From Chlamydoabsidia padenii (lineage: Eukaryota > Mucoromycota > Mucoromycetes > Mucorales > Cunninghamellaceae), in assembly GCA_025330725.1 (NCBI GenBank), contig JAIWND010000033.1:62001-126000 (forward strand): a DNA stretch of 64,000 nucleotides, given 5' to 3'. Below, in pieces: positions 4,491-58,079 of this stretch. The translations under genes were made by a program, and so were the position numbers. The notes under the pieces were generated by a model. That model saw only the letters and a program-made list of their open reading frames with translations. It was not told the DNA's origin and did no database searches. Within the stretch, counting starts at the first letter, position 1. Each line of letters starts with the position of its first letter.

Positions 4491-4502
4491 GCTACGATTT
4501 TA
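4491..4502 (+). promoter_or_regulatory. TTCAAATCCCGC-type upstream motif of CCH1
   Basis: TTTAAATCCCGC lies 113 bp upstream of the CCH1 start codon. It matches a motif repeated upstream of many genes here. A role is inferred only from its recurrence and spacing. Confidence 0.4.
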
Positions 4503-4588
4503 TTGGCTATACGTTTTTATAAGCTAGATAGTAAAGTTGATCCTACCACCACAATAAATAAAGAGAGGCATTGCTTGATCCGTCTAAA

Positions 4589-5285
4589 GGGCTTGTTTGT
4601 CAGTGAGGCTAAACCAACCATCCAGTCTTCTGATCGACTTTGTTATCCTAAACAAATACAAAACAGTTGGTGATCTTGTGTCCATGTACCACTTCTCCTT
4701 TCTATTACCTACCTAGCATTTCCATGGCTGTGCAAATAATAAAGTACGTTTCCCAATTGCTGGCTGTTTTTATCTCTTCGCCACTACAAATGGTTAGATT
4801 GGAATGAGAACTCTTTTTTCTACATACATAGAGTGCACATTACCTTCATTTTCCATCTATATGATTTAGTCAGTCATTTCATAGCAGCCCCAGCCCCACA
4901 ACTTCGAGTAATGTTTCATCCGTTCATCCTAAGCCCACCGGGTGGTCCAAATGAGGGTTCTACAAATCAAGTATTCAAATAAGCAGAGTCATCTTTTACC
5001 TGGTAATCCACCTAGTTTTTAATTTATATGTACTATAACCAGTTTGATAAGCACGGTCAACACCAGCACTTGCCTATTCCAATTTCATTTCATTTCCAAG
5101 AAGAGCATTGTCCTTTCCATCAAGTCTGTTGTTGCTATTAATGTCTTGTTCATGTCTTTTGTTGTTGTTGATTGTGAATCCATTACTGGTCTTGTCTTGT
5201 CAAATGAGTAAATTTTTGTTGATGTGTGTCGTTGATAATTGGAGCGCCAAAGACTAATTCCGTGGTTGTAAATTGCTATGGCCAT
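4589..5285 (-). other. Possible small spliced gene or decayed gene, unassigned
   Basis: The minus strand holds several short open blocks bounded by plausible splice signals: a block from an ATG at 5285, a block giving GLPEPSFGPPGGLRMNG across an intron near 4980, and a block near 4735-4800 (QLGNVLYYLHSHGNA in one frame, NWETYFIICTAMEML in another) that can splice to a tail ending near 4589. I could not join them into one uninterrupted reading frame, because stops intervene between blocks. It may be a gene with exons I have misplaced, a pseudogene, or noise. No family recognised. Confidence 0.15.
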
Positions 5286-5587
5286 AAAGTGTAATATTGT
5301 GTGCTGAATAATAATGGATTATACATAGTGGGAATATGGATCAGAGAGTAAAAAGAAAAAGAAAAGAGATTTACCCCTTTCTTCCTTTTAATACATTTTA
5401 AATCCCGCCTTTCCAGACTCTTGAGCGAGTGGCTTCCTAGGCGTCATTTCATTAATGCGAACTGTTATAATTTGACAATGTATGGATTTTGATCATCTGA
5501 TTTTTTCTTTTTCACAGCATATAAAGGAGCTTTGTATATAAATTCTTTTCAACTTTCCTTGGGGATGCCCACCCAAACAACAACAAC

Positions 5588-5907
5588 ATGTCGGTCACTT
5601 CTTGGAATGAGAATATGGCTAGCAACCCCCCTTTGAGAGGAAAGGGTACAGCCAACGGTAAGTGAAAAAGAAAAGGAAACCACATACTTACACATAATAC
5701 TTACTGATATTGCGTTCTTCGCTTATTCGACGAAAAATTCAAGTTACCCCAGACTCTTCATCATACAACTCGAAACCCATCGTAGTAATGATCATAGATC
5801 ACAAGACTAGTAGACATAAAAATACCGCTCAAGGGGTCGATTATACATTGCTTTTATTAACATGTCATTTTGATGTCTTTATTATTTCAGAATACAAAGA
5901 TTGTTAA
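5588..5907 (+). CDS. Small hypothetical spliced gene
   Basis: A TATA-like TATATAAA near 5536 precedes an ATG at 5588 in a CAACAACAACATG context. Exon 1 (5588-5657) encodes MSVTSWNENMASNPPLRGKG and ends at a good GTAAGT donor. The next AG (ending 5743) restores a frame giving VTPDSSSYNSKPIVVMIIDH and running to a stop at 5907. A further intron is possible: donor at GTAGAC (near 5808), a branch-like TATTAAC and the acceptor TTATTTCAG (ending 5890) would give a protein of about 50 residues with the same KDC tail. No known family recognised. The neighbouring gene on the other strand converges on it. Confidence 0.35.
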
Positions 5908-6023
5908 ACTGTTCCTAATACTAGTTTATTATAAGATCAAATAAATGTGATGATGGTGTACATTATAGTGGATGCACGAGTGTGTGTGAATGTATAAAAG
6001 GGAGAGCGGGGGAGTTTCTACAT

Positions 6024-8116
6024 CTAAAAGTTGATAGCGTTACCAGTAGAGGCGATCAAAGCAGCTTCACGCATGGCTTCAGAGAGAGTAGGGTGAGCGT
6101 GCTATTTTGATTTTCATCAAGACAAAATAAAATAAAAAACTCCAGTCAGTCAGTGTGCTTTGGACAATACCAACCCTGATATCTTCTTTTCTCTTACCAT
6201 AGTTCGTCCGACATCTTCAGCAGAAGCACCGTATCTATAATGGAGATCAGTTAGTTGTTATCCTTCAGTATACATAAATCCATGATTGTGACTTACTCCA
6301 TAGCAAGGACACCTTCGGCAATCATTTCACCGGCGTTAGGACCAATGATGTGGACACCCAAGATACGGTCAGTTTCAGCATCAGCAATCACCTTGACAGA
6401 GCCATCCATGTCGTCATTTGTACGAGCACGAGAGTTGGCAACGAAGGGGAAGCTACCAGTCTTGTATTTGACACCTTCGCTCTTCAATTCAGCTTCGTTC
6501 TTACCAACCCAGGCAACTTCAGGGTGAGTGTAGATCACAGAGGGGACGGCATCATAGTTGACATGACCATGACCAGTACCAATGATTTCAGCAACAGCGA
6601 AACCTTCATCTTCAGCCTTGTGAGCCAACATGGGACCGAAAGTCACATCACCAATACAACGGATGTTGGGCACGTTGGTCTTGTATTCGCTATCAATCAC
6701 CACACGTCCACGGTTGTCCACTTCTACACCAACGTTTTCCAATCCGAGACCCTTGGTGTAAGGACGACGACCAATAGAGACCAACACAGCATCAGCTTCC
6801 AACTAGATTATTAGTAATTACAAAAAAAAAAAAAATATTTAATACAATCGATCCTTCTCCCCCACCTCTATTAAACTTACAGTTTCGGCCTTGCCACCCT
6901 TGGAGGCTTCCACATCCACCTTGACGATATCACCTTCAACCTTGGCACCATTCACCTTGGTAGACATCTTGAATTTGAGACCTTGCTTGGACAGGAGACG
7001 ATGGAAAGTCTTGGCCATTTCAGGGTCCATACCAGCACCAATAGCATCCAAGTATTCAACCACAGTAACTTCAGCACCGAGACGAGACCAAACGGAACCC
7101 AATTCCAAACCGATCACACCAGCACCGATCACGACCATCTTCTTGGGCACCTTGGACAATTCCAAAGCGCCAGTGGAGGACACAATCTTCTTTTCATCGA
7201 TTTCAATACCAGGAATAGGAGTCACTTCGGAACCAGTAGCAATGATAAAGTTCTTACCCTTCAAAGTAGTTTGTTTACCATCCAAGCCTTCGACATTGAC
7301 TTCGCTAGTAGACTTGAAAGAGCCAGTTCCCTTCAAGTAGTCCACCTTGTACTTTTTGAAGAGGAATTCCACACCCTTGGTCAAACCGTTGACTGCCTTG
7401 ACACGAGCCTTGTGCATGTTGTCCAAGTTGAGTTGAACGTCACCGACGTCAATACCGCGGCTCTTCAATCCATGCTTGGTGTCATGGTAGATATGAGAGT
7501 TGTTCAACATGGCCTTGGAGGGGATACAACCGACGTTCAAACAGGTACCACCGAGAGTACCACGCTTTTCAATACAGGCAACCTTCAAGATAATAAAATA
7601 AAATAAAAAGTATTATTAATAAGACGAGAAAGATGAGTTATCAAAAGGAAGCTTCACTTTACCTTGAGACCTTGTTGAGCAGCCTTGATGGCAGCAGGGT
7701 AACCGCCAGGTCCTAAATCATACCAAAAACAGATAAAATGTTGAGTATTTCCAATCCGTATTCCTTATTAATCCAACTTACCACCACCAATAACAACAAC
7801 ATCGTATTCAGTGTCTACATAAAAGTAAAAGATTATAATAGCAAGTTAATGAATGTAAAAGCCTTTTCAAACTAGTAACCTACCAGCAGGGGAGCTGTAG
7901 AAGCGATAGAATTGGTTGGCAATAGGAGCACGCACTGACTTGACGGCAGCGTTACGGGCAGCAACCTATAATATAAAAAAAAAGTGTGTGAGTTGGTTCC
8001 CCCAAAGATGGATCCCCAACCAAATCATGGGTATTTCCCCCCTTCTTTTTTCCAAACTAGTGTATCAAATCGATACTTACGTTGGCTAAAGGCTTGGAAG
8101 TCACCAATCGAAACAT
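6024..8116 (-). CDS. LPD1: Dihydrolipoamide dehydrogenase, mitochondrial (E3)
   Basis: FAD flavoprotein that reoxidises dihydrolipoamide in the pyruvate, 2-oxoglutarate and branched-chain dehydrogenase complexes and the glycine cleavage system of the mitochondrial matrix. Eight exons: 8116-8081, 7965-7884, 7814-7782, 7712-7663, 7582-6881, 6802-6297, 6234-6198 and 6101-6024; 507 residues, normal for the family. The first 40 residues ([20 protein letters not shown] onward) are a basic, acid-free mitochondrial presequence. The FAD-binding GGGPGG lies near residue 49, the redox-active disulfide GGTCLNVGC is at C81/C86, the NAD-binding [13 protein letters not shown] lies in the central domain, and the catalytic dimer-interface His-Glu pair is H485/E490 (HPTLSE). 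Exon 2 encodes most of the presequence. The gene looks intact. Confidence 0.97.
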
Positions 8117-8413
8117 GATTATAAAAGGTTGTTAAATAAAGAAGAAATGGAAAGAAAAAGGAAAAGGAAGTAATATTTAAGGGAAAACAGCGGGAAGAAA
8201 AAATTTGTGGGTCTGTTCGACGTCATTCAGTGGACAAGCGGGGAATGAAATTACTTCCGGTGGTTTCCATTTGCCTTTCTACCCCTTATTTTTCCCTTTT
8301 CTTTGTAATCAGTGATATCCATTTTTTTTTTTTTTTTGATTCTATATGAACAACTTACTTGTTCCTCCACCCTTACCCAACCCTTTCAAATGAATCATGC
8401 AGAGGTGTTTGAA

Positions 8414-8427
8414 GGCGGGATTTGAAA
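8414..8427 (+). promoter_or_regulatory. GGCGGGATTTGAAA motif between CDC10 and LPD1
   Basis: This is the fullest version of the recurrent upstream motif in the window. It lies 298 bp upstream of the LPD1 start and just past the CDC10 stop, so it is farther from a start codon than most copies. Confidence 0.35.
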
Positions 8428-8533
8428 ATAAAACTTTATTCGGCAGGAAAAGAAAGATTATTAATAGAGTCATCATAAGACTAGACATCTCCTTATGCAT
8501 ACATAAAAGGAGATTAATAGGAAAGAGCTGGAA

Positions 8534-10160
8534 CTAAGCGGGGCTTCCCACCGCAGGTGAGGCATTAACACCACTTGAGTTCATGGTAGTAGCACTGGAT
8601 GGGGCATTGGGCGTGGAGGGTTGAGACATTGGGCCAGGAGAACTCTTCCCAGCATGAGTGGATTCCTTGATAGCTAACAACTGTTTGGCTCTAAAAGCTT
8701 CATAATGAATTTGAGCAGTTGTTTCAATCAAATCCTGAAGATGAGTACGGGTCAAAAAGTTACGAAGATAGATGAATTCACAATGTTCTTCGTTCTCGAC
8801 TAATTAGCACAGAGTGAAGGGTTAGTACTAATACTAGTCAGTCATTTGCTTTAGAAAGACTTACCATTGATAATTCCGTATCGATTCTTTCTGCCACGAA
8901 CAGGTTTACCATCGATCACCACGTTTCTTTCTGATCCTACAATGGCAAAAGGTAAAAGTTCCTATTGATGAAAAGAGGGACAGTCAAAAACCGGAAAGAA
9001 CAAAATCAAGGCACAATCACTTACACGAATACTTTCATTCAATGCTTGTTCTTGTTCATCGTCTTCATCACTTTCGTACGGGTACAACTTGATGTTGTGG
9101 AAAATCAATTCAGCCTTGATCTGTCAAAGAAGAAGAAAGTGATTAAAGCGCCGTTTGAAAATGCAAAAGTTTACCCTTTGCTTAAATGCATGTCGTTCCT
9201 CGATCGTTAAAGAATCAGACTTGGCAATGACAGGAACAACATTCACTACTTCGGAAAGCTTTTTAAGGACAACGATATCGATAGGTTTCAATCTAATAAT
9301 AGATATAAATACATAAAAAAAAAACACCCCAAATGTCATCGACATCATTATTATCTTGAAAAAAGGAAGAATACAAATTGGTTATCTTGAATTTACGCAT
9401 GACCAGTAGGACTAATGAAGAAAAGACAACAATGGATTCGACTGTCTTGAATATATCGTTCTCGTGTAGCTGTTAGCTCTTTACGAAGGTAAGCTGAATG
9501 TTGATCTTTTATATATTTGATGATGGGTTCCCAACTAGGAAAAGATATGCAAAAAAAAAAAAATGAATTTCAAATCCCGACGAGAAGGAGAGTTGTTCTT
9601 TTACCAGTTTTCGTTATTCACCTGATCCCCATAACCAGGAGTATCAACAATGTTCAATCTTAAATGAACGCCATTTTCTTCAACCACTAAAAAATACAAA
9701 AAAAGATTGCCAAAAAAAGAGTGATTATAAGAAACATGATTTTTAGTGATTGTTTATGCAAATGGGTTTACAGTGAGAGACAGTTTCAATTTCGGTTGTT
9801 TGGCGATTAGGTTCATCTGCAGCCAACCTTGCTTTACTTTCAATTAGATGGGATGCAAATATGGTGTTAACCAATGTAGACTTTCCGAGCCCAGATTGTC
9901 CTAGTTTCAAGAAGTGAAGATGAATAGATAGTGAAAGGATATATGGGTTCGACTCTTTTTTTTTCAATTACCGACAACCATCACGTTAAAGTGGAATCCG
10001 CGTTTTAGCAACTTCTTTTCGATTTGCTGAGTGATGGTATCAAAACCAACATAACCTTCCAAGGATGTCTAGTATAAAACGAGTTTCCTTTAATTTAATT
10101 TTATTTTTCTTTCTCTTCACTTACAGCAACAGGATCAACGGCAAGTGAACTTGACGACAT
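8534..10160 (-). CDS. CDC10: Septin, Cdc10 class
   Basis: GTP-binding septin that assembles into heteromeric rods and filaments at septation sites and hyphal branch points. Nine exons: 10160-10125, 10068-9972, 9900-9772, 9686-9605, 9534-9397, 9292-9175, 9120-9025, 8961-8865 and 8799-8534; 352 residues. G1 is GQSGLGKST (residues 45-53), G3 is DTPG (102-105) and G4 is AKSD (184-187). The start TSLEGYVGFDTITQQIEKKL, the block CWEPIIKYIKDQHSAYLRKE and LKPIDIVVLKKL are the sequences I associate with Cdc10. Like Cdc10, it lacks the C-terminal coiled coil of other septins and ends instead in a short Ser/Pro/Ala-rich tail. It shares a 359-bp divergent promoter with NAA38. Confidence 0.95.
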
Positions 10161-10519
10161 TTGATTTAGTTTTAAAGCTGAAGAAAAAGAAAAAGAAAAA
10201 GAGAAAGGGAATGTGAGTCTTAATCGGCTTTTGTAGATGTAAAAAAAAAAAAAAAAAAAAAAAAAAGGAGAGGAAAAGAGAACAAAGGAGATTGACGAAT
10301 AAAGTAGGTATATTTCTTCTGTAATAGGGTGAGTGTTACTGTCTATCCCATCACAAGGAGAGGTTCCATCCCTTTTGATGCCTGGGACTCCTACTTTCCA
10401 CCCCCTTTTGCATGAATCTATCCTATTTTCCCATCGATTTGAAAACCCGACAATCTCATGACTTTCTTTCGAAAACATTCATATTCCGCCCTTTCTCTTT
10501 TCCTTTTGTCATTCTACAC

Positions 10520-10859: not shown

Positions 10860-11610
10860 TTTCCATACATCTCCCCTTCCCTCGTGTATATATTGTTGTA
10901 CCTTTTTTTTTTTTAATTTTATTTTACCTTACCTTACCTTCCTCTTTATATTGTAACTATAGCACTGTTTGAATATCAATCTTAATAAATCAGAACATTA
11001 TTAATGTGTGATAGCATGTCATATACTTGGCTTGACTAATACGGATTCCCACTTTGTTTTACTTTGACGATAATATGTTTTGTTTAGGCACCATTGAGGC
11101 ATTGCTGTAAATTGTCTGATAACAATCTCCGCTGCAGCACAATTTGGCCAGCTATGTATCATTTGGGGATTAAAAAAAAGGTTTATCACATGTATACACA
11201 CTCAGGTAAGATGATGTACATTCCAGAGTATGTGTCCTGAATTACTCGATCAGAGCTTCATCAAGGCGTGGATCGAAACATGCTGCAATAAATAACAATC
11301 ACTTTATTTGGAAAGACAATGTACGGATGAGTGTTCCGATCCTTACATATGTAGGGCAAAAGGACCGGATTCGAATGAAAAAGTATCAATCAATGTTATC
11401 TTCTTTAAAAGTGCCATTGTTGTTGTCAACGGGACTACCGCTTAAAGGGTGTAGCATAATCGGAAGTTGAAATGTAGGCATATTTCTAAATTTGGGCGAT
11501 GTTTTGCTTTGCCGATATTTTTTTAAACCAACCGTTCTTGATTTTTTTAGTTTTACTCTCTTTCTTTCGCTTCCTGATCACTTTCCCCCCTTTCTTCTAT
11601 TCTATATACT
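10860..11610. other. Intergenic; possible tiny minus-strand exons, otherwise nothing recognised
   Basis: This 750-bp gap holds a T-rich 3' region for NAA38 and the promoter of the next gene. On the minus strand, blocks near 11345-11430 (MALLKKITLIDTFSFESGPF, overlapped in another frame by MPTFQLPIMLHPLSGSPVDN) and 11249-11283 (CFDPRLDEALIE then stop, after an ATTGCAG acceptor) look exon-like, but their splice phases do not match in the arrangement I can build. I do not call a gene. Confidence 0.2.
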
Positions 11611-14842: not shown

Positions 14843-14854
14843 CGGAATTTGAAT
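14843..14854 (+). promoter_or_regulatory. CGGAATTTGAAT upstream motif of AHA1
   Basis: The A-variant of the recurrent motif lies 80 bp upstream of the AHA1 ATG. I looked for a regular nGAAnnTTCn heat-shock array nearby and saw only imperfect repeats. Confidence 0.35.
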
Positions 14855-16984: not shown

Positions 16985-17935
16985 CTTCAAAGATAGGAGG
17001 TGGTCAGTGCTGGGGAAATTGTACGATATTTAGGATTATATCTAGATGTAACCGATCAAATCAGTAATCCAAAAAGATGAGGTTTTTATGAGACGTCAAA
17101 TGGTTATGGTATTTAGGTTAAAAGCCAAGTACCAAGACCCTTGTGTCAATCTGTGCGATGACTTTTACCTGTCATGAAACCCACCTCGTGTTCAAATCCC
17201 GCTTTACCTTGAATCCTTACCAAGATTTTGGATGGACTCTCCTCGCTCCATTGTTAAAAGGATGCTAATGATTAAAGTGGTGAAGTGAATACTAGAACCC
17301 ATTTCCAATATACTGTACCGCAAAAGTCAAGCACCAGGATCCTTGTGTTAGTCAGTCCAAGCTTGCAATGAGGTTTATCTGTCTTTTACAAGAAATAAGG
17401 ACGCAGACTTTTTTTACAGACAGAAGCAAAAATCATTTTCAAAACCCGCCAGTCCCTAGTCAGGGTTGGAAAGGGCTCTACTCGCTCCATTGCCAACGGA
17501 TGCTAATGATTAAAGTGGCCATGTGGACACTATGACCCATTTACAACATACTTTACCGCAAAGTCAAGTACCAAGGCTTCTGCGTTAGTATGTTTAGACT
17601 TGCAATGACATTTACCTTTTCTTTGCGACGAAAGATAATTTTTTTTCTTTGTAGACGAAAGAAAGCTTCATTTTCAAACGCCGAACACCCAAATTCAATG
17701 CGCCTAGCAGTTCCCGATTTGAGGGCATGATCATGGCGGGGAAGCGATGTCAGTCGAGATTTCGTTACTCGTTGTAGAGCCCATGTATGCAGTCTCTCTC
17801 CACCCAACTTCTCCCGTGCCCCCTCTTTGCGAGGGCACTCCATTCCATTTCTATTACTATCAACACATTGTTGCGCTAAAAAGCGGGATTTCAAAGTTTT
17901 ATGAAGTTTGAGATGTCCGTACGATGTGGCAGGAT
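16985..17935 (+). repeat. Dispersed repeat, locus A (two tandem units of about 240 bp plus a longer 3' part)
   Basis: A noncoding repeat that also occurs at 27055-27660, at 39240-39415 (reverse) and in divergent form at 56040-56735. Two tandem units are visible: TTCAAATCCCGC at 17191 and TTTTCAAAACCCGCC at 17437, GATGCTAATGATTAAAGTGG near 17262 and 17502, so the period is about 240 bp. Each unit runs from the CCCGC motif through GGCTCTACTCGCTCCATTG to CCATTT-CAACATACTTTACC and CAAGTACCAAGGC. The 3' part (17590-17935) matches locus B closely and holds a minus-strand open frame (17894-17553). That frame has matching words in B (LQRVTKS-LTSLP-HDHA-KSG, EFGC-AFENEAF), but most differences between the copies change the amino acid, so it is probably not a protein under selection. 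Confidence 0.85.
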
Positions 17936-25680: not shown

Positions 25681-25695
25681 TTTTTAAATTCCGCC
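25681..25695 (+). promoter_or_regulatory. TTTTTAAATTCCGCC upstream motif of GRC3
   Basis: A copy of the recurrent motif 81 bp upstream of the GRC3 ATG,  reading GGCGGAATTTAAAAA on the gene's own strand. Confidence 0.35.
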
Positions 25696-27054: not shown

Positions 27055-27660
27055 GTTCAAAGATAGGAGGTGGTCAATATCAATAAAAAATAAGTGATAA
27101 AAAAAATGGAGTCTTCATTAAACGTCAAATGGTTATGGTATATTACAAACTTCATTTTCAAATCCCGCCAGTCCCTAGTCAGAGTTGGAGAGGGCTCTAC
27201 ACGCTCCATTGTCAACAGATGCTAATGATTAAAGTGGCCATGTGAACACTATGACCCATTTCCAACATACTTTACCGCAAATTCAAGTACCAAAACCCTT
27301 GTGTTAGTATGTTTAGTCTTGCGATGACTTTTACCTTTTCTTTGCGACAAAGATTTTTTTTTTTCTTCTTGACGCAAGAAAGCTTCATTTTCAAACGCCG
27401 GACACCCAAATTCAGTGCGCCTAGCAATTCCCGATTTGTGGGCATGATCATGGAGGGGAAGCGATGTCAGTTGAGATTTCGTTACTCGTTGTAAGTTCAG
27501 ACACTGGCCCAAATTTATATACGCAGTCTCTCTCCACCCAACTTCTCCCCGTGCCTCCTCTTTGTGGGGGGTACTCTATTACTATCAACACACTGGTGCG
27601 CAAAAAAGCGGGACTTCAAAGTTTTATGATGATGAAGAAGGGTGAGATCTCCGTATGATT
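27055..27660 (+). repeat. Dispersed repeat, locus B
   Basis: Second near-full copy of the locus A element. It shares the start AAAGATAGGAGGTGG, then GTCAAATGGTTATGGTAT, one 240-bp unit (TTTTCAAATCCCGCCAGTCC at 27156, GCTCCATTGTCAAC, GATGCTAATGATTAAAGTGG, CCATTTCCAACATACTTTACC) and the long 3' part ending in AAAAAGCGGGACTTCAAAG. It has one unit where locus A has two, so unit number varies. Substitutions are scattered and no terminal inverted repeats or target duplications are evident by eye. Confidence 0.85.
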
Positions 27661-31789: not shown

Positions 31790-32228
31790 TGTATGTATAA
31801 GGAAGATAAGAAGAGGTGAGAAAAAAAAAAAATCGAGAAAAGGTGAGAGGGTGAAAAAGGGTAATTTCAACCCCCGAAAAACAAGGCTATTTCCTGCACG
31901 AGAATTACTATCAACCCAGTCTTAGATTTAATATACTACTCTTGAAAAAGAAGTAATGTTGTAATCATATATATACTTATCATTGAAAAAAAAAGAAAGA
32001 AAGAAAGAAAGAAAGAAAAGTTATAGGTATATCATGTGTAGATAGCCACCAGATCATTTATTATCGTATTGAGATGTCAAAAAAAAAAAAAAAAGTCGGA
32101 GTGTCGAATGTCGGGATTTGAAATATATATACACCCAACTTTCATTTTTTTTTTGTAGTTGTTTTTTGTTTTTTTTTTGTTTTCCCTTCTTCTTCCCAAT
32201 TATATTCTGCATCTCTGTTTAACAGATA
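31790..32228. other. Divergent promoter region
   Basis: Shared upstream region of the 31101-31789 gene and the 32229 gene. It contains an (AAAG)n run near 31992-32016, TCGGGATTTGAAAT at 32111-32124 (105 bp upstream of the plus-strand gene) and TTTCAACCCCCGAA at 31865-31878 (75 bp upstream of the minus-strand gene). Confidence 0.45.
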
Positions 32229-33929: not shown

Positions 33930-36486
33930 ATGCCCATGTTTGTATATAAACGAGGTAAAAACCATCCCATCTTCTCACCATGGTCTTCCTGCTAACTAAG
34001 CTTTCTTTTATATAGACGGTCGACAAGAACAAGTTGCTTTTGACAAGGTATGTATTATTATAAAATAGGAATTATATAGTCCGTGAACTAATCTTCCTTG
34101 TGTTTAGATTACCGCAAGAATCAATAAGCTCTGCTATGGATTGGACACCAACTTTGTTGACCCTGTAGCTATTACTCAAAAGGTATGAACCCACCTCTCT
34201 CTATCTATCATTGTTTTCTAATTAATTCAACTGTTTTTTAAATAGGTTATCTCTGGTGTCTATCAAGGTGTGACCACAGTGGAATTGGATAACTTGGCTG
34301 CCGAAACTGCTGCTTATATGACCACGACCCATCCTGACTATGCTATCTTGGCTGCTCGTATTGCCATCTCAAACTTGCACAAGGAAACCAAAAAGGTGTT
34401 CTCTCAAGTGGTGGAAGACTTACACAACTATGTGAACCCCAAGACTGACAAGCTCTCACCCATGATCTCTGACTATACTTATGACATTGTCCTCAAGAAT
34501 GCTGATCGTCTAAACTCTGCTATCATTTATGACCGTGATTTTGGTTATAATTACTTTGGCTTCAAGACGCTGGAACGCTCCTATCTTTTGAAAATCAACG
34601 GCAAGGTGGCGGAACGTCCTCAACATTTGATCATGCGTGTGGCGGTGGGCATCCATGGTGAAGATATTGACTCGGCTATCGAAACCTACAACCTCATGTC
34701 TGAAAAATACTTTACTCACGCCAGTCCTACTTTATTCAACGCTGGTACTCCTCGTCCTCAAATGTCCTCTTGCTTCTTGCTGACCATGAAGGAAGATTCT
34801 ATTGAAGGTATTTACGAAACATTAAAGGTGTGTGCTCAAATCTCCAAGACAGCAGGTGGTATCGGGCTCAACATTCACAACATTCGTGCCACTGGCTCCT
34901 ACATTGCTGGTACAAATGGTTACTCCAATGGTATTCTTCCTATGCTCCGTGTCTTTAACAACACCGCCCGTTATGTGGATCAAGGTGGTAATAAACGTCC
35001 TGGTGCTTTTGCTATGTATCTCGAACCTTGGCATGCGGATATCTTTACCTTTTTGGATCTCCGTAAAAATGTCGGCAAGGACGAAATCCGGGCTCGTGAT
35101 CTCTTTTATGCTCTTTGGATTCCTGATCTCTTTATGAAACGTGTGGAAGCCAATGGTGACTGGTCCTTATTCTGTCCCGCTGAAGCGCCTGGTCTACAAG
35201 ATGTGTGGGGTGATGAATTTGAAGCTCTCTTTGAAAAATACGAACGCGAAGGCCGTGCTCGTCAAACTATGAAGGCACAAAAACTATGGTATGCGATCTT
35301 GGAAGCTCAAACTGAAACCGGTAACCCCTTCATGCTCTACAAGGATGCGTGCAACCGCAAGTCGAATCAACAAAACCTCGGTACCATCAAATGCAGCAAT
35401 CTTTGTACCGAAATCGTTGAATACTCTAGTCCTGATGAAGTCGCTGTGTGCAATCTTGCCAGTATCGCCTTGCCTTCCTTTGTTGTCAACCGTGAATCCT
35501 ACGACTTTAAAAAACTCCATCAGGTCACCAAAGTTATCACCAAGAACTTGAACAAGATTATCGATATCAACTATTACCCTGTGGTGGAAGCCGAACGATC
35601 CAACAAGCGTCATCGTCCTATTGGTCTTGGTGTCCAAGGTCTAGCTGATGCTTTCATGTTGATGCGATATCCTTTTGAATCTGATGAAGCCAAGAAATTA
35701 AATCAACAAATCTTTGAAACGATCTACCATGGTGCTTTGGAAGCTTCTTGTGAACTGGCGGAACGAGACGGTGCGTATGAAACTTATCAAGGTAGTCCTG
35801 TTTCTAAGGGTCAATTGCAATATGATATGTGGGGGGTCACACCTACCAGTCTATGGGATTGGGCCAGTCTAAAGGACAAGATCAGCAAACACGGCGTACG
35901 TAACTCATTACTGGTGGCACCTATGCCCACCGCCTCGACTTCGCAAATCCTCGGCTTCAACGAATGCTTTGAACCCTACACGTCCAATCTGTACACCCGT
36001 CGGGTCCTGGCTGGTGAATTCCAGATCGTCAACCCTTGGCTCTTGAAGGATCTCGTCGAATTGGGTATCTGGAACGAAGACATCAAGAACCGTATCATGT
36101 CCGACAGCGGCTCGGTGCAAAACATTCAAAACATTCCGGATCATCTCAAGGCAATGTACAAGACGGTATGGGAAATCTCACAACGGACGTTGATTGATAT
36201 GGCGGCTGATCGTGGGGCGTTCATTGACCAAAGTCAAAGTCTGAATATCTTTATTGGGGTGCCCAACTTTGGGAAATTGACAAGTATGCACTTTTATGGC
36301 TGGAAGAAGGGACTCAAGACGGGTATGTATTATTTGCGCACACGACCTGCCGTGGATGCTATCAAGTTTACTGTCGATCAATTATCGCTCAAGGATTACA
36401 AGGAACTCAAGAACAAGGATGAAAATGAAGCGGATATGGTTTGCTCATTGGATAACAAGGATGCTTGTATCAGCTGTAGTGGATAG
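33930..36486 (+). CDS. RNR1: Ribonucleoside-diphosphate reductase large subunit
   Basis: Class Ia catalytic subunit that reduces NDPs to dNDPs. Four exons (33930-33954, 34016-34047, 34108-34182, 34246-36486) give 790 residues, close to the animal length and shorter than the 888 of budding yeast. The N-terminal ATP cone starts [20 protein letters not shown], so the dATP-inhibition site is present. Catalytic residues are visible: the thiyl partner Cys near 220 ([12 protein letters not shown]), the NLCTEI loop and [10 protein letters not shown]. The C-terminal redox shuttle is [12 protein letters not shown], with a C-x2-C pair in DACISCSG. A second in-frame ATG two codons in could also serve. 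Neighbours are unrelated. Large downstream exon with codon use typical of a highly expressed gene. Confidence 0.97.
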
Positions 36487-36789
36487 AATATCTCTCTCTC
36501 CCTTTTTATTATCATCGTCATTGTATCTCCACCCCCTACTCTATCATTATTAACAAACTATTGTACATCTCATCTATTCTTTTTTTTTATATATTTTAAA
36601 CATCAATAAATATCATACTAACATTGTCATCATCAAAAACTGCCTTGTCTTCTCTGAGCCAAAATCCTGTCGAACTGAATCGGGGTTTGAATATAGTTGA
36701 ATTTGAAATGGTCAATCCTCGCCCCCTCTTCTCTTCTCTTCTTTTTCCATTCCAACTGATCGATCCATCCTCCTCTTTCTCATCAACTA

Positions 36790-39030: not shown

Positions 39031-39239
39031 AATTTAGTATAGTTACCGTTTAATGTATTTTATTACTTTTATATTCCATTTTTTTAATAGCCTATTTAAT
39101 AAACGATACATTTACACATCTATATTGTATATTTAATAATTGGGGATGTCAATGATGAAAGGCATTGGTGTGATGAGTTCACGGGGTTTGAAATATGTTT
39201 TCTTTTTTTCGAGTTCAATGGACTAAACCACATCCCTCT

Positions 39240-39415
39240 CAGCCTTGACCTTACCTACACGAGGGTCTAAACGTTTAGCTTTTGCTGTAAAGTATGTTGG
39301 AAATATAGCATAGGTTTCACAACACCACTTTAATCATTAGCATCGGTTGGTAATGGCGAGAGAAATGGTGTTTCTAATTCTGACCAAGGTCTAGGCTGGG
39401 CGGGATTTCAAAATA
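39240..39415 (-). repeat. Dispersed repeat, locus C (single reverse unit)
   Basis: One isolated unit of the 240-bp family in reverse orientation between GUP1 and NTE1. The reverse complements of locus A words appear in order: CTTTGTAA/GTAAAGTATGTTGGAAAT near 39290, CACTTTAATCATTAGCATC near 39329 and GGGCGGGATTTCAAAA at 39398-39413. The rest of the locus A element is absent. The gap to 39688 otherwise shows only 3' sequences and a TA run at 39662-39680. Confidence 0.8.
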
Positions 39416-45148: not shown

Positions 45149-45160
45149 TTCAAATTCCGA
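45149..45160 (+). promoter_or_regulatory. TTCAAATTCCGA upstream motif of NTE1
   Basis: Copy of the recurrent motif 98 bp upstream of the NTE1 start; a second TTTGAA half lies directly beside it (CTCAAATTCAAATTCCG). Confidence 0.35.
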
Positions 45161-46835: not shown

Positions 46836-46849
46836 TCGGTATTTGAAAT
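46836..46849 (+). promoter_or_regulatory. TCGGTATTTGAAAT upstream motif of PCT1
   Basis: One-mismatch copy of the recurrent motif 80 bp upstream of the PCT1 ATG, in the opposite orientation to the gene. Confidence 0.3.
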
Positions 46850-50232: not shown

Positions 50233-50246
50233 TTTTAAAATCCCGC
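50233..50246 (+). promoter_or_regulatory. TTTTAAAATCCCGC upstream motif of the release-factor gene
   Basis: Copy of the recurrent motif 81 bp upstream of the start codon. Confidence 0.35.
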
Positions 50247-51388: not shown

Positions 51389-52006
51389 AGTAATGATTAG
51401 AAAGAGGGAAAAAAAAAAAAAAAAAAAAAAAAAGGAGAATGGAGTATTTCTCGTTTATAGAACCTGTCAGTTTCAATTCGAACTTCCTTATTAGGGTCGG
51501 AGCAATTCGGGATGTCAAAAAAAAAGAACTTCTGGGGAAGACTGATCTGACCACATTTTCCAATAGCATAAACATGAGATCACAATATCAGTGTTTTACT
51601 TTGATGAACCTCTGGATGGACATTGAGTAAATAAAAGGGAGATAAGCATGGTGAGTAATGCTCGATATTCAAATCCCGCTATATGCAAAACTGTTCGTCC
51701 TTTCCTTATTGTATTCATACAGTTTGAAAAAAAAAAAAAGAAAAGAAAAAGGGAAACAAGGTAAAAAAATCATTTTATTTTCCACTTGATATTAAATTCA
51801 GCATGACAATGGTGAGTGCCTGATAGGAACATTCATTCCACCTATTGAGAATATTGAATACCAGCCAGCCAGCCTCATTTCTTTCAAGTCACTTTTTTGG
51901 ACCTCCGTAAATAAAGTTGGAGTTTTTTTTTTTTGTGCCTCTTCTTTTCCGAAACTTGTTTTTTTACACAAACCCCATTGTCTAAATAAACAAAATCCTT
52001 ATTACC
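51389..52006. other. Intergenic, promoters of two divergent genes
   Basis: Contains a long A run (51411-51433) and ATTCAAATCCCGC at 51667-51679, a full copy of the recurrent motif lying about 280 bp from the minus-strand start and 330 bp from the eIF4B start. Confidence 0.45.
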
Positions 52007-53623
52007 ATGTGTAAGTTTACCTCAACTCCTTTGAACTAACCTTGAACAAGACAACATTTTATGCTACATTGATCTTACTCACCTTCTCTTTTATCATAAT
52101 GAAGCTGGCAAAAAGAAAACTCAAAAGCAAAAGATGTCCTTGTCTGACTTCTTGGCAGATGAATGTAAGTAATAATGACTAAAAGATAAGAACATACTAA
52201 CCTGGTTTCTTTGTCTGTTATTATAGCCAGTGGATCCTGGGCTGATGAAATGTCTGATCTCCCCACTGCTCGTAAGTTTTACCTCTCACTCATCTAATGA
52301 AACCCTTTGTGGGTTTACTTACACCCTTCTTTTTTATACACAATGTGGTACATTATTTGTGGCATGGACTTTATAGCTTCAGGTAAATGTGTGGTTGGTG
52401 TTACTAAAGGCGGGAAAAGATCCAAAGATACTCATCCTTCTACCTTTGTTTACTATAGTTGGTAGAGAAGAAACTGGTGGTTTCGGTGGTAACAGTGGTG
52501 GTCGCTTTGGTAAGTAAATAGCTATATAATTTGTGTGTGTGTGTGTGTGTGTGTGTGGGAAATGAATGGTTTGATTTGACTCGATTTGTATTCTCCTGAT
52601 AAAAGATGACTTACCTCGTGGACCTGCTCGTAACAATGGGGATCGATATGGTGACCGTGAAGATAGACATCAAGGTGGATTCCGTGATGGTGGATTCCGT
52701 GAACAACGCGGTGGGGACCGTGAACGCTCTTTCCCTCCTCGTGGTCCTGTCGTATTACCTACCGAGCCTCCTTTCACTGCCCACATTGCCAACTTATCTT
52801 TTGATGTCAATGATGATGATTTGGTCGAATTCTTCTCTGGTTTAAAGGTATAAAAAAAATTTTATTCAACAAATGAAGGATACTAACATTTTTATATCAT
52901 ATAGGTGAACCATTTCCGTATCATGCGTGATCGTGAAAGTGATCGATCCAAGGGTTATGGTTATATCGAATTCGAAGATCTTGACTCTTTGAAGGCTGCT
53001 TTGGAATTGAATGGTGAAGTAAGTAAATAATGATATCAAATAACATGGTATGGATCATTTATAGTTTTGTATGTTTTTTACTGGTGGGGTGGTTTATTGC
53101 TAGCCTCTTCAAAACCGTGCCATCCGTGTCAATGTTGCTGATCCTCGTAAGTAAATGAAATGAAAAAATGGAAACCAAGGGTTGATGGTAAAATTAACAG
53201 CAATTTATGATAGCCAAGGAACGTCAAGAACGCCCTGAACGTCAAGATCGTACTAATGTAGGTACCTGGCGCCGTGAAGGACCTGTGGTGCTTCCTGAAC
53301 GTGAACGTCCCGAACGTACTGGTGGTTTCCGTGAACGTCAAGAACGCCCTGAACGTACCTTTGGTGATCGTCGATCGGATACGTCATGGAGTGGTGGTGC
53401 CTTTGCCAACAATAACCGTCGTCGTGATGCTCCTGCCGAAAGACCTCGTTTGAACCTTTTGCCTCGCTCTGTCAGTGGTAACAAGACTGATGAAGGTGCG
53501 GCTAAATCTAACAAGTCCAGTCCTTTTGGTCAAGCTAAACCTGTGGATACTACCAAAGTTTTGAACCGTGTGGAAGACAAGATGCAACATTTGAAGGTGG
53601 ATGATGACAAGAAGGCAGAATAG
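52007..53623 (+). CDS. TIF3: Translation initiation factor eIF4B-like protein
   Basis: RNA-binding stimulator of the eIF4A helicase and ribosome recruitment. Nine exons: 52007-52010, 52105-52164, 52227-52271, 52377-52382, 52459-52509, 52606-52847, 52905-53018, 53104-53146 and 53214-53623; 324 residues. The start reads MSGKKKTQKQKMSLSDFLAD and SSGSWADEMSDLPTAP, both typical of fungal eIF4B. An RRM spans about residues 110-190 with RNP2 AHIANLSF and RNP1 SKGYGYIEF. Arg/Gly/Asp-rich repeats surround it, including ERQERPER twice after the RRM. The first coding exon is ATGT only and exon 4 is a 6-nt micro-exon (CTTCAG). A (GT)n run at 52531-52557 lies in intron 5. Confidence 0.92.
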
Positions 53624-54610
53624 ATGACCTCGATTCTTATAAATAACTTTATACTTTTCTTTGGACAATCATTTGGCCCTCTCTTTTTTTATTGTTAGAT
53701 ATGGATATTATCCCCCCTCCCTCCCATTCATCTTTAGTTATTTTATATAGCCCCGTCTCTTTTATCATACATTTACTATTTATATAAAAAAACATTTTAT
53801 TTTTTTAAAAAAAAAAAAGTGTCTTTGCTACAGTGTGGTCTTTATTTGATGCGTTTGTGAAGGGGGGGGTGACAATAGTATAATGGATCTATGACTAAAA
53901 GGTATACATTGTTAGGATGGCGTACAATATAATGTTAAAAAAGGGAATGAATCTAGAGTTACATCTGTATATTGATTTACCTATAGCTTACCTTTGCTTT
54001 TATTCACCAATAATAATACAATGACATCGCTACAATGATTATTGAACACAAAAGCGAAGCTTGTATGCCACAACGCCATCCCTGAAAGAAAAAAAAATTA
54101 AAAAGGGCGATTTGCTACGGACACGTAGGGATTTTCCACGTAGACTTTTTCAAGGGTTTGATTTATTCTTAACTGAAATATCAGGGGCATAGGAGGGTAC
54201 ACTCATCCGTAAATAATAAATGTGGTCAGTGGACAAAAAAATGGAGTTCACACGTCTGTCGGTATTTAAATGTTGCATGATTTTCAGATTTTCATTGTTG
54301 TCAATCCTCTCCCCTTTTATCCGCTAGAGCGAATTGGCTATGAAAAATCTGTGTTCTTTGTCCACTCTCCTTTTATCTTTTATTACTCTTTTTCTTTTAC
54401 AATGACTGATCTTCTTTTATCCTGTATTCTTTGTTTGGTTCCACCTTGGTTGGTGATAAATCTACTTTCAAATCCCGCCATAAATACCCCGATCGCGGAG
54501 AGTAAAATCACATGAGGTATTAAAAAAAAAGCTGTGGTCGCATCTTTCCCCCTTTCTTTTTACTCCTCTTTTTATTGAACAATCCAACGCTTACTAAATT
54601 CTGATTCAGT
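53624..54610. other. Intergenic
   Basis: 3' region of eIF4B (long A run at 53797-53818) and promoter of the next gene, with TTTCAAATCCCGCC at 54466-54479, 132-145 bp upstream of the 54611 start. Otherwise nothing recognised. Confidence 0.45.
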
Positions 54611-55528
54611 ATGATAGGAAGCGCCGACATTGATGAAACGACTAAAAACAACAAAAGAAAGCGCTCGAGCTCATTCACTGAACGACACCATGCTGGAAAA
54701 TCATGTAAGTTGTGATGCTAAAGAAAAAATTTACAGAGCAAAGAACGATACTGATTCCTGTTTTTATTATATAGGCCTTGAAGCATGCATTAAAACTACT
54801 AAAAATTCAAAGTTCGCCAAGTTTATATCACAATACAAAAAGGACATTGCTGCTTGGTCTATTGATTGCGAATCGAAAAAAGGTAAACTTTTTTTCCCTT
54901 TACCAACTTCACATCATACATATTGGCGAAGATAATCAGCAAACGTAAGATAATTTATTCAGAATTGTATTGTAAAAAAACTGATAATAATATTATTTAT
55001 AGGTAAAAACATAAAGCAGATCCAGGAAACGGAAGGTCTTTTGAAGGAATTTCAACAAAAAGAAGCGATAAAGAAGACACGACATAAAGTATCAGATCAG
55101 CGGTACCGAAAAATCAACTACGAAAAGGTAAAGGAATGGAATCGGGTCGGCGCATTCAAGAATTCTGTTAAAAAGTTTTTTGAAAAGTACGACAATGATA
55201 AAGCTACTACCTTCACTGCGGCGATTGACATCACAGACGTTTACACAAGAAATATCCTGACAACATTGACCTCTATGCACTCACTTCTCTTACGGTACAC
55301 CGGGTAAAAGAAATACATCATGATCAAGAAGACAAGTTTACAACTCTAACTGAAACATTCGGTGAACCCTGGTTTGACAAAGAAGTACTCCCCGAATGCT
55401 TCCATGGGGAAATCGAACGTTTACCACCCTCGACAAGTCACCTCCCACTTCTGGCGACATTTTTAACTGGTGCAAACAACATCCTCGGTCTGCTCATGAG
55501 TTGGGGGTCACCCATTCTGCATGGGTGA
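54611..55528 (+). CDS. Basic spliced protein, unassigned
   Basis: Exons 54611-54704, 54775-54882, 55003-55186 and 55237-55528 join in frame to give 225 residues, but the last intron (50 nt, GTACGA...ATCACAG) is inferred because without it the frame stops near 55307. The N-terminus has a bipartite-like basic stretch (KNNKRKRSSSF). The middle is Lys-rich and helical (FAKFISQYKKDIAAWSIDCE, KEFQQKEAIKKTRHKVSDQR, KVKEWNRVGAFKNSVKKFFE). The C-terminal part (PDNIDLYALTSLTVHRVKEI, LTETFGEPWFDKEVLPECFH, TGANNILGLLMSWGSPILHG) looks like a different, more globular part. I recognise no family. A nuclear role is suggested only by the basic stretch. Confidence 0.45.
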
Positions 55529-56039
55529 CTACATAGTATAGTCCCCTCACGTTCTCTCTCTCATTGTATCATGTTCATGGTCATTGTTATCATCATTACC
55601 ATCATCATTATCATCATCAAATAAAATGTGTTTATCTTATCTCCTATGTCTTTATTTGTTTGAAAAAATGTATGCGCTGGAAAAAAAAAAAAAGAAAAAA
55701 AAGTGTTTATTCAACAATGCGTATTGGTGCTGGGTGGGGAAGGGGATGAATTACAGACGGTTTCGTTTATATTTGAGCAGGAATGACCCGGTTGCATGAA
55801 TTTTGGCCTGACATTTTAAATCCCGCCATATCAGGGCGGTCCTTGATCATCTTTAGTCATCCAAGGTAGTAGCTAGAATCATATTGTCGTTGTTAAAGTC
55901 AATTAATGGTGGTATACTGAGACCATTGTATGGCTTACTTGATAATTTACTATTTGACTATGACTTCGTCTTTGATGTTGTCTTCTTTGGTCATATTTGA
56001 TTGTGAAGATGTTTCGTCTTCTTTTATATCGTTTAATAG
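55529..56039. other. Intergenic
   Basis: Poly(A) signal-like AATAAAATG near 55621 for the previous gene and ATTTTAAATCCCGCC at 55813-55827. No gene seen. Confidence 0.4.
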
Positions 56040-56735
56040 GTTACACGGGATTTTAAATTGAATCCCCGTATGATCGTTCGTACATGACTTTCCAAATCTT
56101 GATTCTTGGGAGAGCTCTACTGCCTTAATGGACAAGTGATCCTCATGACAAAAATGACCGTGAGCATTCCTTAGCCTACTTCCAACAAAGTTTACATAAT
56201 GGCCATTGTACCAAGTCCCTTGTATGGAGCAGTACAGCCTCAGGATCGTTTTACCCTGATTTTTCTAATAAAAAAAAGTTGCAGAATGAAAATTGACACA
56301 CAAGACCAAACTTATTTGAAAACCCGCTTACTCTCGCCTGGAATCTTAAGAGAGCTCTACTGTCTCAATGAACAAGCGATGCTAAAGACAAAAGTGACTA
56401 TGTGCATTCCTTAGCCTATTTCCAACAAAGTTTACATAATGGCCATTGTACCAAGTACCTTGTATGGAGCAGTACAGCCTCAGGATCGTTTTACCCTGAT
56501 TTTTCTAATAAAAAAAAAAGTTGCAGAATGACAAATTGACACACAAGACCAAACTTATTTGAAAACCCGCTTACCCTCACCCTGAATCTTAAGAGAGCTC
56601 TACCGTCTCAATGGACAATGGATACTCATCAATAAATGGGCCATGAGCATTGCTTAGCCTATTTACAACAAACTTTACATAAAACACCAAGCGTCAAATC
56701 CTTTGTATGGAGCTGTACAGGCTTGCAGTCTTTTT
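56040..56735 (+). repeat. Dispersed repeat, locus D (three divergent tandem units)
   Basis: Three head-to-tail units of about 242 bp. GAGAGCTCTAC(T/C)G recurs near 56109, 56349 and 56594; GAAAACCCGCTTA near 56318 and 56561; GGAGCAGTACAGCCTCAGGA near 56226 and 56466. Unit architecture equals loci A-C (CCCGC motif, GCTCTACTG block, GATGCT-A-GA-AAA-GTGAC, CCTATTTCCAACAAAGTTTAC, TTGTACCAAGT), but the sequence is much diverged, so it is a separate subfamily. Adjacent units are nearly identical to each other, suggesting recent duplication or conversion inside the array. Confidence 0.8.
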
Positions 56736-58079
56736 TTCTTTTTCTTTTTCTTTTTACCTCCCGTGTCTAAAAAAGGAGAGTATCAGGTCTCACCTCGTTA
56801 TCTCAAATTGATGCCAATAAACCGAGTGTGTACTTTTATAATGTACTCTCAGTAAAAAGTCAAGCTTTCAGGTACTCAATTCAATCGAACCAAGTTTAAG
56901 GTCATATGTATTAGGCCAACAAACAATCAACTACCTTGATACTCTTTCGTTTATCACAAAGACATATGTATAAAGTGTTTGATATGATTTTTTTATTACA
57001 TCCAGTTAAAAACAAGAATCATTTCTATACTATATCTACAGCTATGACTATACTATTGTGAGAAGGAGGGGGCTGATAAAGGGATGAGAGATAAAGAATG
57101 ACAGAGACCGTCACCACTTTTGTTCATCGTTCAATCCAATCCAATGTTAAAGAGTGAGCCGCTCGTTTTTTTCCTGTTGTCTGATCATCTAATCCTACTG
57201 AATAAACCACATTAAGTTGATCATTTTACCTTTCCTGGATCTGTCGAGGTGGAGTTTTGTTAAGACGTTCATGCAAAGTGGGTGAGAGTTTTCGTGATGA
57301 GACGGTTGATGATTTGCATCCTGTTTGCTCGTGACCTGTTGATTTGTTATTCATTGTGACACACAATTGTCTTCATAGACGTCGATTCAGGTAAATAGAT
57401 GATCAGTCGTCCAAGTTGTTGCTTACGTTTGCTGGTATTTGGGTCACCTATTCACCTAGACAGATAGAAAAAGAGAAGTATCAGTATCAAAGTCTTGATA
57501 AAGGTGTTAACTCAAAAGAGAAAGACCCATTTTACAGCATCTCCTTTTTTCCCTGTTGTTTGATTGCTTTACCTTTTTCCGTATTAGCGGTGTGATGTAA
57601 TTGTTGACCAGACTGTTTGCGCCAAGAAAGTAAACCCAAGGACTTTTAACTAGTTCGTTGTCGATGGGTTCGGTAAGCCTTAAAAAAAAAATAGCAAACC
57701 AAATAATTGTCAAGGTGGATAGATTGAGCTGGTCTTGTATCCTATTAGTTCATTGTGAGTGAGAAAAAGAAAAACGAGCTGACTTTTTTCTTTTGAAGGC
57801 CCTCCTCCTCCCCTTTCCCCGCGAATATTTTTAAATCCCGCTGGTAGAAATGACAGATCACACCTGATAAAAAGAAAGGAGGAGTATGATCTTGAAACTG
57901 ATTTATATGGGATGTAACTACGTTCCCCAGATAGTGTGTGTGCTATTAAATTCAAATTCCGCTCATTTCCCCAAGTCATCAAGATTCCCACCAACAGCGG
58001 AGATAATTCTATAAAATTAAAATAATTGGCTTCCCTCGCTTTCTTCTTTACTGTAATCACTCTCACACTCTTTAAAATC
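56736..58079. other. Intergenic with one exon-like block
   Basis: On the minus strand 57678-57570 reads LTEPIDNELVKSPWVYFLGA then NSLVNNYITPLIRKK, between an acceptor (TTTTTTAAG) and a donor (AAAAAG|GTAAAG). I could find no in-frame start or partner exon: the nearest upstream ATG meets TAA and TAG at once. It may be a relic or part of a short mitochondrial-type protein. TTTAAATCCCGC at 57829-57840 and TTCAAATTCCGC at 57951-57962 are motif copies; the latter is 118-129 bp upstream of the next gene. Confidence 0.3.

What the first reader, a model, noticed from the sequence alone, without database searches (positions are those of the whole stretch)
4491..57962. A recurrent motif, CGGRATTTGAA (TTCAAATYCCG), sits 80-135 bp upstream of many start codons
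Copies occur upstream of CCH1 (4491), NAA38/CDC10 (10436, variant GATTTGAAAACCCG), AHA1 (14843), GRC3 (25681), CKB1 (30681, variant), the 32229 gene (32111), the 31789 gene (31865, variant), GUP1 (36681, CGGGGTTTGAA), NTE1 (45149), PCT1 (46836), the release factor (50233), the 54611 gene (54466) and the quinone reductase (57951). Distances to the ATG cluster between about 75 and 145 bp, in both orientations, although the genes have unrelated roles. That fits a general promoter element. The GC-rich half next to TTTGAA recalls the CDE/CHR and E2F-like elements of animal cell-cycle promoters, but most of these genes are not cell-cycle genes, so that likeness may be chance.
Basis: partly seen in the sequence, partly recalled or inferred. 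Interest (0 to 1): 0.8.

Follow-up and report, generated by a model that had tools for sequence, protein, structure and literature searches.

The report
Genome-wide promoter element in a Mucorales fungus
A short DNA word, roughly CGGGATTTGAA, sits about 110 letters before the start of around half of this mould's predicted genes, in either direction and next to a stretch rich in C and T, and so looks like a general landing site for a still unknown protein that opens or marks gene starts.

Summary
CGGRATTTGAA occurs 12 times in the window (0.14 expected) and 4,571 times in the 34.2-Mb genome (reversed-word control 7); CGGVRTTTVAA occurs 10,562 times (control 101). The refined motif is RKCGGGATTTGAAWWT (17.4 bits). 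In 264 kb a weight matrix finds 209 sites, 185 intergenic, 187 outside the 240-bp repeat. Orientation is balanced. A pyrimidine tract lies about 55 bp downstream, the ATG about 40 bp later. I read it as the site of a general-regulatory-factor-like protein, not identified. Limits: among intergenic sites the 40-200 bp zone is enriched only two-fold (59 of 163 against 18%), and 54 of 187 sites are over 1 kb from any predicted start they could serve. The cell-cycle CDE/CHR reading is not supported: the TTTGAA half breaks LIN54's TTYRAA rule, and LIN54 and LIN9 were not detected (no positive control). No chromatin, RNA or cross-species data were available. The parts of my paper-search listings that were shown name no such motif.

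The parts
8239..8249 (+). motif variant, 122 bp upstream of predicted ATG 8116 (- strand gene with Pyr_redox_2 domain), opposite orientation
8416..8426 (+). exact motif, 299 bp upstream of predicted ATG 8116
10439..10449 (-). motif variant CGGGTTTTCAA, 70 bp upstream of predicted ATG 10520
10478..10488 (-). motif variant CGGAATATGAA, 31 bp upstream of predicted ATG 10520
11461..11471 (+). motif variant CGGAAGTTGAA, 139 bp upstream of predicted ATG 11611
14843..14853 (+). exact motif, 80 bp upstream of predicted ATG 14934 (AHA1-like gene, Aha1_N domain just under the cut-off)
25683..25693 (-). motif variant CGGAATTTAAA, 82 bp upstream of predicted ATG 25600
31866..31876 (-). motif variant CGGGGGTTGAA, 76 bp upstream of predicted ATG 31789
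32112..32122 (+). exact motif, 106 bp upstream of predicted ATG 32229
36681..36691 (+). motif variant CGGGGTTTGAA, 98 bp upstream of predicted ATG 36790
45149..45159 (-). exact motif, 97 bp upstream of predicted ATG 45051 (gene with cNMP-binding and patatin domains, NTE1-like)
46837..46847 (+). motif variant CGGTATTTGAA, 80 bp upstream of predicted ATG 46756, opposite orientation
50235..50245 (-). motif variant CGGGATTTTAA, 82 bp upstream of predicted ATG 50152 (gene with RF-1 domain)
51668..51678 (-). exact motif between divergent predicted starts 51388 (-) and 52007 (+), 279 and 328 bp away
54467..54477 (-). exact motif, 133 bp upstream of predicted ATG 54611, opposite orientation
57830..57840 (-). 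motif variant CGGGATTTAAA, 239 bp upstream of predicted ATG 58080, opposite orientation
57951..57961 (-). exact motif, 118 bp upstream of predicted ATG 58080, opposite orientation
17183..17683 (.). 240-bp repeat units carrying motif copies (17191, 17438, 17673); the minority class, counted apart from promoter sites
27146..27400 (.). 240-bp repeat units with motif copies (27157, 27390)
39182..39411 (.). 240-bp repeat units with motif copies (39182, 39401)
56046..56748 (.). 240-bp repeat units with motif copies (56046, 56058, 56316, 56559)

Best explanation
The motif RKCGGGATTTGAAWWT is the binding site of one abundant, sequence-specific protein that works like the general regulatory factors of yeasts (Reb1, Abf1, Rap1). 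Bound about 55 bp upstream of a pyrimidine-rich start zone, in either orientation, it keeps the promoter clear of nucleosomes so that transcription starts in that zone about 40 bp before the ATG. Shown here: the motif, its numbers, its enrichment at predicted promoters, its lack of a preferred orientation there, its spacing to the pyrimidine tract, and its independence from the 240-bp repeat. Inferred: that a protein binds it, that it is one protein, that it excludes nucleosomes, and that the pyrimidine tract marks the transcription start.
For: Copy number: 4,571 exact genome-wide against 7 for the reversed word; CGGVRTTTVAA 10,562 against 101. Among 10-mers seen at least 12 times in 93 kb of intergenic DNA (simple repeats left out), CGGGATTTGA is the most over-represented, 29 against 0.13 expected. 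Location: 185 of 209 matrix hits intergenic; 58 of 110 predicted starts have a hit 40-200 bp upstream against 12.9 (sd 3.6, max 28 of 500 shifts); 41 of 84 against 8.9 (sd 2.9, max 21 of 1,000 shifts) in the four segments outside the window, and similar with five other gene models. Only 3 of 110 have a non-repeat hit in the matching stretch after the ATG. Region type: non-repeat hits 2.33 per kb between divergent genes (20 of 20 regions hit), 1.94 tandem (52 of 65), 0.88 convergent (7 of 20). Orientation: 30 same, 30 opposite pairs at 40-200 bp; 85 and 81 within 1 kb. Pyrimidine tract: motif to tract median 56 bp, tract to ATG median 42 bp, 60 pairs. Without gene starts, a tract 15-75 bp away on either side at 109 of 196 sites against 497 of 2,000 control positions. 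Predicted starts with a tract carry the motif in 56 of 79 cases, those without in 2 of 31. 76 exact copies share nothing beyond about 15 bp. Precedent: general regulatory factors are replaced between yeasts, and novel nucleosome-depleted motifs were found only in the earliest-diverging species studied (PMC2897762, passages read).
Against: No binding protein was found. No nucleosome, RNA or start-site data were available. Gene starts come from my own gene finder, not from transcripts. Measured against random non-repeat intergenic positions the promoter zone is enriched only two-fold: 59 of 163 intergenic sites lie at 40-200 bp against 729 of 4,000, and 95 of 163 within 400 bp against 1,623 of 4,000; 54 of all 187 non-repeat sites are more than 1 kb from any predicted start they lie upstream of. 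Of the 49 exact copies only 23 lie within 400 bp upstream of a predicted ATG. 24 of 209 hits lie in predicted exons or introns, and convergent regions hold 11 non-repeat hits. 87 of 196 sites have no pyrimidine tract at 15-75 bp. 37 of 110 starts have a hit at 200-360 bp and 21 at 400-560 bp; same-orientation hits rise again at 250-300 bp (13 same, 5 opposite). A coarse coding profile around 76 exact copies looked asymmetric and I cannot explain that. Missed genes and first exons may account for part of this, or the element may have further roles. A dedicated activator with very many targets would look similar.
Confidence: 0.62

Rival explanations
1. A CDE/CHR-like element of a MuvB/DREAM-type complex: CGGG bound by E2F-DP and TTTGAA bound by a LIN54-type CXC protein, spread to many promoters in this lineage.
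For: TTTGAA is the LIN54 core (PMC4974476, passages; the JASPAR form ATTTGAATT is recalled). Six E2F/DP domains are in the genome. TTTAAA and TTCGAA forms also occur.
Against: LIN54 accepts TTYRAA. Genome-wide, CGGRATTTYAA, which that rule excludes (1,600; control 25), outnumbers CGGRATTCRAA, which it allows (442; control 16). PF03638, the human LIN54 DNA-binding domain and the LIN9 DIRP domain found nothing in the genome, without a positive control. CGG to TTTGAA spacing in this word is 2 bp; the paper describes 4 bp between CDE and CHR in many DREAM promoters, though a CDE is not required. T before CGG in 40% of sites does not fit GCGSSAAA. The ribonucleotide reductase large-subunit gene lacks a site within 450 bp.
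Confidence: 0.08
2. A core-promoter element read by the basal transcription machinery itself, like TATA, at a set distance from the start.
For: Spacing to the pyrimidine tract clusters (median 56 bp). Only 13 of 60 site-gene pairs have TATAWAW between motif and ATG.
Against: Equal numbers in both orientations and a spread of about 19 bp are unlike a directional core element.
Confidence: 0.1
3. The site of one dedicated activator of a large growth or housekeeping regulon, not a nucleosome-excluding general factor.
For: Present upstream of 58 of 110 predicted starts, not found at the others.
Against: The window genes with a site whose domains I could name are functionally unrelated, and 56 of 79 predicted starts with a pyrimidine tract carry it.
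Confidence: 0.15
4. Spread by a dispersed repeat (the 240-bp family or another mobile element).
For: 22 of 209 hits lie in the repeat; 27 of 209 have flanks matching another hit's flanks. One repeat unit has 74 matches genome-wide, a lower bound.
Against: 187 of 209 lie outside the repeat. The flanks of 76 exact copies share nothing beyond about 15 bp.
Confidence: 0.02
5. A TFIIIC B-box or extra-TFIIIC site (TTCAAATCC resembles the tRNA B-box; recalled).
For: The minus-strand reading TTCAAATCCCG resembles a tRNA T-loop.
Against: A B-box needs GG before TTCAAATCC (recalled), that is CC after TTTGAA; the next base is A or T in 72 of 76 copies. No tRNA was found in the window and no Rfam family reached its gathering score.
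Confidence: 0.01

Closest known systems
General regulatory factor sites of budding yeasts (Reb1, Abf1, Rap1, Cbf1)
   Same: Many unrelated promoters, upstream of the start zone, both orientations, high information content; lineage-specific turnover is described in PMC2897762 (passages).
   Different: The word differs from the Reb1 (CGGGTAA), Abf1 and Rap1 sites (recalled). No factor is known and nucleosome depletion is untested.
CDE/CHR elements of the MuvB/DREAM complex in animals
   Same: A CGG-containing half followed by TTTGAA.
   Different: Two-base instead of four-base spacing, TTTNAA rather than TTYRAA, found upstream of about half of predicted genes, no LIN54 or LIN9 detected (no positive control).
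E2F/DP sites (GCGSSAAA, PMC4862756, passage)
   Same: GCGGGA is shared by the copies with G before CGG; six E2F/DP domains are encoded.
   Different: T precedes CGG in 40% of sites, the fourth base varies, and the conserved right half TTTNAA has no counterpart in GCGSSAAA.
6mA sites of Mucorales (VATB in Phycomyces, AAAACA in Mucor; PMC11258239, passages)
   Same: Found in the same group of fungi; the motif holds one AT step.
   Different: Those are methylation contexts of 4-6 bp, not a 14-bp word; no modification data exist here.

Membership tests
General regulatory factor site | Occurs in the promoters of many functionally unrelated genes | tested here: met
   58 of 110 predicted starts against 12.9 by shifting; 41 of 84 outside the window; against intergenic background two-fold. 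Gene functions were checked for a few window genes only
General regulatory factor site | Position-dependent but orientation-independent | tested here: met
   30 same and 30 opposite pairs at 40-200 bp, 85 and 81 within 1 kb; tracts on either side. One search looked asymmetric
General regulatory factor site | Lies in a nucleosome-depleted region and is needed for it | not testable with these tools
   no chromatin data
General regulatory factor site | Bound by an abundant, usually essential DNA-binding protein | not tested
   factor not identified
MuvB/DREAM CDE-CHR element | CHR half follows the LIN54 rule TTYRAA | tested here: not met
   CGGRATTTYAA 1,600 against CGGRATTCRAA 442 genome-wide, controls 25 and 16; rule from PMC4974476
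MuvB/DREAM CDE-CHR element | Genome encodes LIN54 (CXC) and LIN9 | tested here: inconclusive
   no match, but no positive control; the query was confirmed as LIN54 by 5fd3_A
[quoted passage not shown]
   the over-represented word has two bases between CGG and TTTGAA; other spacings were not scanned, and the paper says a CDE is not required
MuvB/DREAM CDE-CHR element | Enriched at cell-cycle genes | tested here: inconclusive
   one marker gene only: ribonucleotide reductase large subunit, no hit within 450 bp
E2F/DP site | GCGSSAAA-type core | tested here: not met
   matrix: base before CGG is T in 40%; fourth base G only 66%
TFIIIC B-box | GGTTCRANNCC core (recalled) | tested here: not met
   base after TTTGAA is A or T in 72 of 76 copies
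Dispersed repeat | Copies share flanking sequence | tested here: not met
   no shared flank in the column counts of 76 exact copies; 27 of 209 hits do share flanks with another hit, 22 lie in the 240-bp repeat

The most novel reading that the evidence does not exclude
This lineage runs a large share of its promoters on a single new general factor that reads CGG and TTTNAA together on one helical turn, a DNA-binding specificity not described so far; it would define a promoter code for Mucorales distinct from the yeast Reb1/Abf1/Rap1 code.
Probability: 0.33. Interest if true: 0.8.

Novelty: new member of a known kind. Interest (0 to 1): 0.6.

Why it matters
My searches turned up little on promoter elements of early-diverging fungi. 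A 14-bp element near about half of the predicted genes gives a direct handle: a bait to pull out a main promoter factor, a marker for start sites and gene annotation, and a test of how general promoter factors are replaced over fungal evolution. It could also guide expression constructs in Mucorales used in biotechnology.

Tried and rejected
Rejected readings: repeat origin for most sites, TFIIIC B-box, E2F site and CDE/CHR. A first, coarse look at coding signal around 76 exact copies suggested a fixed orientation; the gene models showed both orientations about equally, so I dropped that idea, but I have no explanation for the asymmetry.

The four other segments are. With the models the result there is still 32 of 68 against 7.0.

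The matrix threshold was tuned on the same 264 kb (reversed matrix at most 5% of hits). The shift control does not hold sites to intergenic DNA; the later comparison with random intergenic positions gives a smaller, two-fold, enrichment. The tract distances are bounded by the chosen 40-200 bp range; the other test in that call needs no gene starts, but it drops exonic sites by my gene models, and its 27 extra loci were not filtered for repeats. The repeat-unit alignment was made from units picked for having the motif, so its conservation there is biased.

Literature: listings seen were 20 of 73; 4 of 4; 15 of 40; 3 of 3; 5 of 5; 12 of 181; 25 of 43; 3 of 3. None of the titles and abstract starts shown is about this motif; the unlisted papers were not seen. 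Of the listed papers I read passages of three (PMC11258239, PMC4974476, PMC2897762), and also passages of PMC4862756, fetched by DOI.


Full report
What was checked. The word CGGRATTTGAA is in the window 12 times exactly against 0.14 expected, and 28 times with up to one mismatch against 4.0. In the whole genome that holds the window (34,228,448 bases, 95 contigs) it occurs 2,278 + 2,293 = 4,571 times, while the same word read backwards occurs 7 times. A relaxed word, CGGVRTTTVAA, occurs 10,562 times against 101.

The organism. That the species is close to Absidia is an inference from one protein.

The motif. In 76 exact copies (49 in the 264 kb of window and tiles, 27 from further loci on contig C1), only about 15 bases are shared; base counts on both sides are unremarkable. 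Counts of single changes in 93 kb of intergenic DNA show that C1, G2, G3, A10 and A11 are nearly fixed and T6-T8 strongly preferred, while positions 4, 5 and 9 vary. A weight matrix gives RKCGGGATTTGAAWWT with 17.4 bits. At a threshold where the reversed matrix yields 10 hits, the real one yields 209 in 264 kb; scaled up, that suggests about 26,000 sites in the genome (inference).

Location. I wrote a small ab initio gene finder, since no annotation was at hand; the settings gave 110 genes. Of 209 hits 185 are intergenic, 13 in exons, 11 in introns. A hit lies 40-200 bp upstream of 58 of 110 predicted start codons; shifting the hits round each segment gives 12.9 (sd 3.6, largest 28 of 500). 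In the four segments outside the window it is 41 of 84 against 8.9 (sd 2.9, largest 21 of 1,000 shifts). Five other gene models give 32 of 68 (models), 42 of 89, 43 of 84, 44 of 88 and 44 of 89 there, each against 7.0 to 9.2. Exact 11-mers alone give 10 of 84 against 2.3 (largest 9). The matching stretch after the ATG has a non-repeat hit in 3 of 110. Non-repeat hits are densest between divergent genes (2.33 per kb, 20 of 20 regions), then tandem (1.94, 52 of 65), then convergent (0.88, 7 of 20).

Limits of the location result. Part of the enrichment is simply that sites avoid genes. Against random non-repeat intergenic positions, 59 of 163 intergenic sites lie 40-200 bp upstream of a predicted start against 729 of 4,000, and 95 of 163 within 400 bp against 1,623 of 4,000; 54 of all 187 non-repeat sites are more than 1 kb from any predicted start they lie upstream of. 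Of 49 exact copies 41 are intergenic but only 23 lie within 400 bp upstream of a predicted ATG. 37 of 110 starts have a hit at 200-360 bp and 21 at 400-560 bp, and same-orientation hits rise again at 250-300 bp (13, against 5 opposite). Missed genes and first exons may explain some of these; I could not test that.

Architecture. Aligned on the motif and turned to the gene's direction, G falls to about 0.05 and C+T rises to 0.74-0.83 at 55-85 bp downstream, in both motif orientations (30 pairs each). The best pyrimidine stretch between motif and ATG lies a median of 56 bp after the motif (sd 19), and the ATG a median of 42 bp after that (sd 26) (60 pairs). Without gene starts, a tract of at least 18 pyrimidines in 20 lies 15-75 bp from the motif on one side or the other at 109 of 196 sites, against 497 of 2,000 random non-exonic positions; 87 of 196 sites have none. 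Predicted starts with such a tract carry the motif in 56 of 79 cases, those without in 2 of 31; some of the latter may be wrong starts. TATAWAW lies between motif and ATG in 13 of 60 pairs.

The repeat. Its units carry motif-like copies and account for 22 of the 209 hits; by a flank comparison, 27 of 209 hits have relatives among the others. It does not explain the rest.

Which factor. The TTTGAA half recalls the CHR element bound by LIN54, whose rule is TTYRAA (PMC4974476, passages read). The genome does not follow that rule: CGGRATTTYAA, which it excludes, 1,600 against control 25; CGGRATTCRAA, which it allows, 442 against control 16. Pfam PF03638, the human LIN54 domain and PF06584 (LIN9) found nothing, but no positive control rang, so absence is not proven. 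E2F/DP domains are present six times, in keeping with the hybrid cell-cycle networks reported for basal fungi and 'Zygomycota' (PMC4862756, passages). The E2F core does not fit the matrix. The ribonucleotide reductase large-subunit gene (PF02867), a standard cell-cycle target (recalled), has no site within 450 bp upstream. The invariant CGG would suit a zinc-cluster protein, but that is a guess.

Mechanism. The pattern (many genes, preferred position, no orientation, next to a start-like pyrimidine zone, mostly no TATA) is that of a general regulatory factor site. In yeasts such factors change between lineages, and novel nucleosome-depleted words were reported only in the earliest-diverging species of one panel (PMC2897762, passages). 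I therefore take the motif as the site of an unidentified general factor, at 0.62 (lowered from 0.68). Binding, nucleosome exclusion and the start-site role of the tract are inferred.

Novelty. Searches for the word and for promoter motifs of Mucorales or early-diverging fungi showed no paper on this element among the rows listed; several listings were only part of the hits, and the library holds open-licence papers only. As a kind of thing it is known (general promoter factor site); as an element and, probably, a factor it appears new.

Noticed in passing
window 17183-17683, 27146-27400, 39182-39411, 56046-56748; C2-C4 segments: A dispersed, diverged repeat built of tandem units of about 240 bp, in convergent or tandem (not divergent) intergenic DNA in the 11 regions, 10 of which hold motif copies; at least 74 matches genome-wide. 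Its origin and role are unknown.
   Followed up: partly
intergenic DNA of the 264 kb sample: A second over-represented word, TTCATGCA (29 against 5.1 expected), that is not concentrated within 300 bp upstream of 107 predicted starts (4 occurrences over both strands there).
   Followed up: no
G000 C1, C7, C8, C19, C56, C67 (places): Six E2F/DP-type domains in one fungal genome, all six over the family cut-off.
   Followed up: no
window 33930-36486: Ribonucleotide reductase large-subunit gene, one of the predicted genes without a motif hit within 450 bp upstream.
   Followed up: partly
window 14828 and 14843: Two motif-like sites 15 bp apart upstream of the AHA1-like gene; 17 neighbouring pairs of non-repeat sites lie within 150 bp of each other in the sample.
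   Followed up: no
window 61541-63820: A single-exon gene with a fungal-specific transcription factor domain (PF04082), with a CTG-variant site 162 bp upstream.
   Followed up: no
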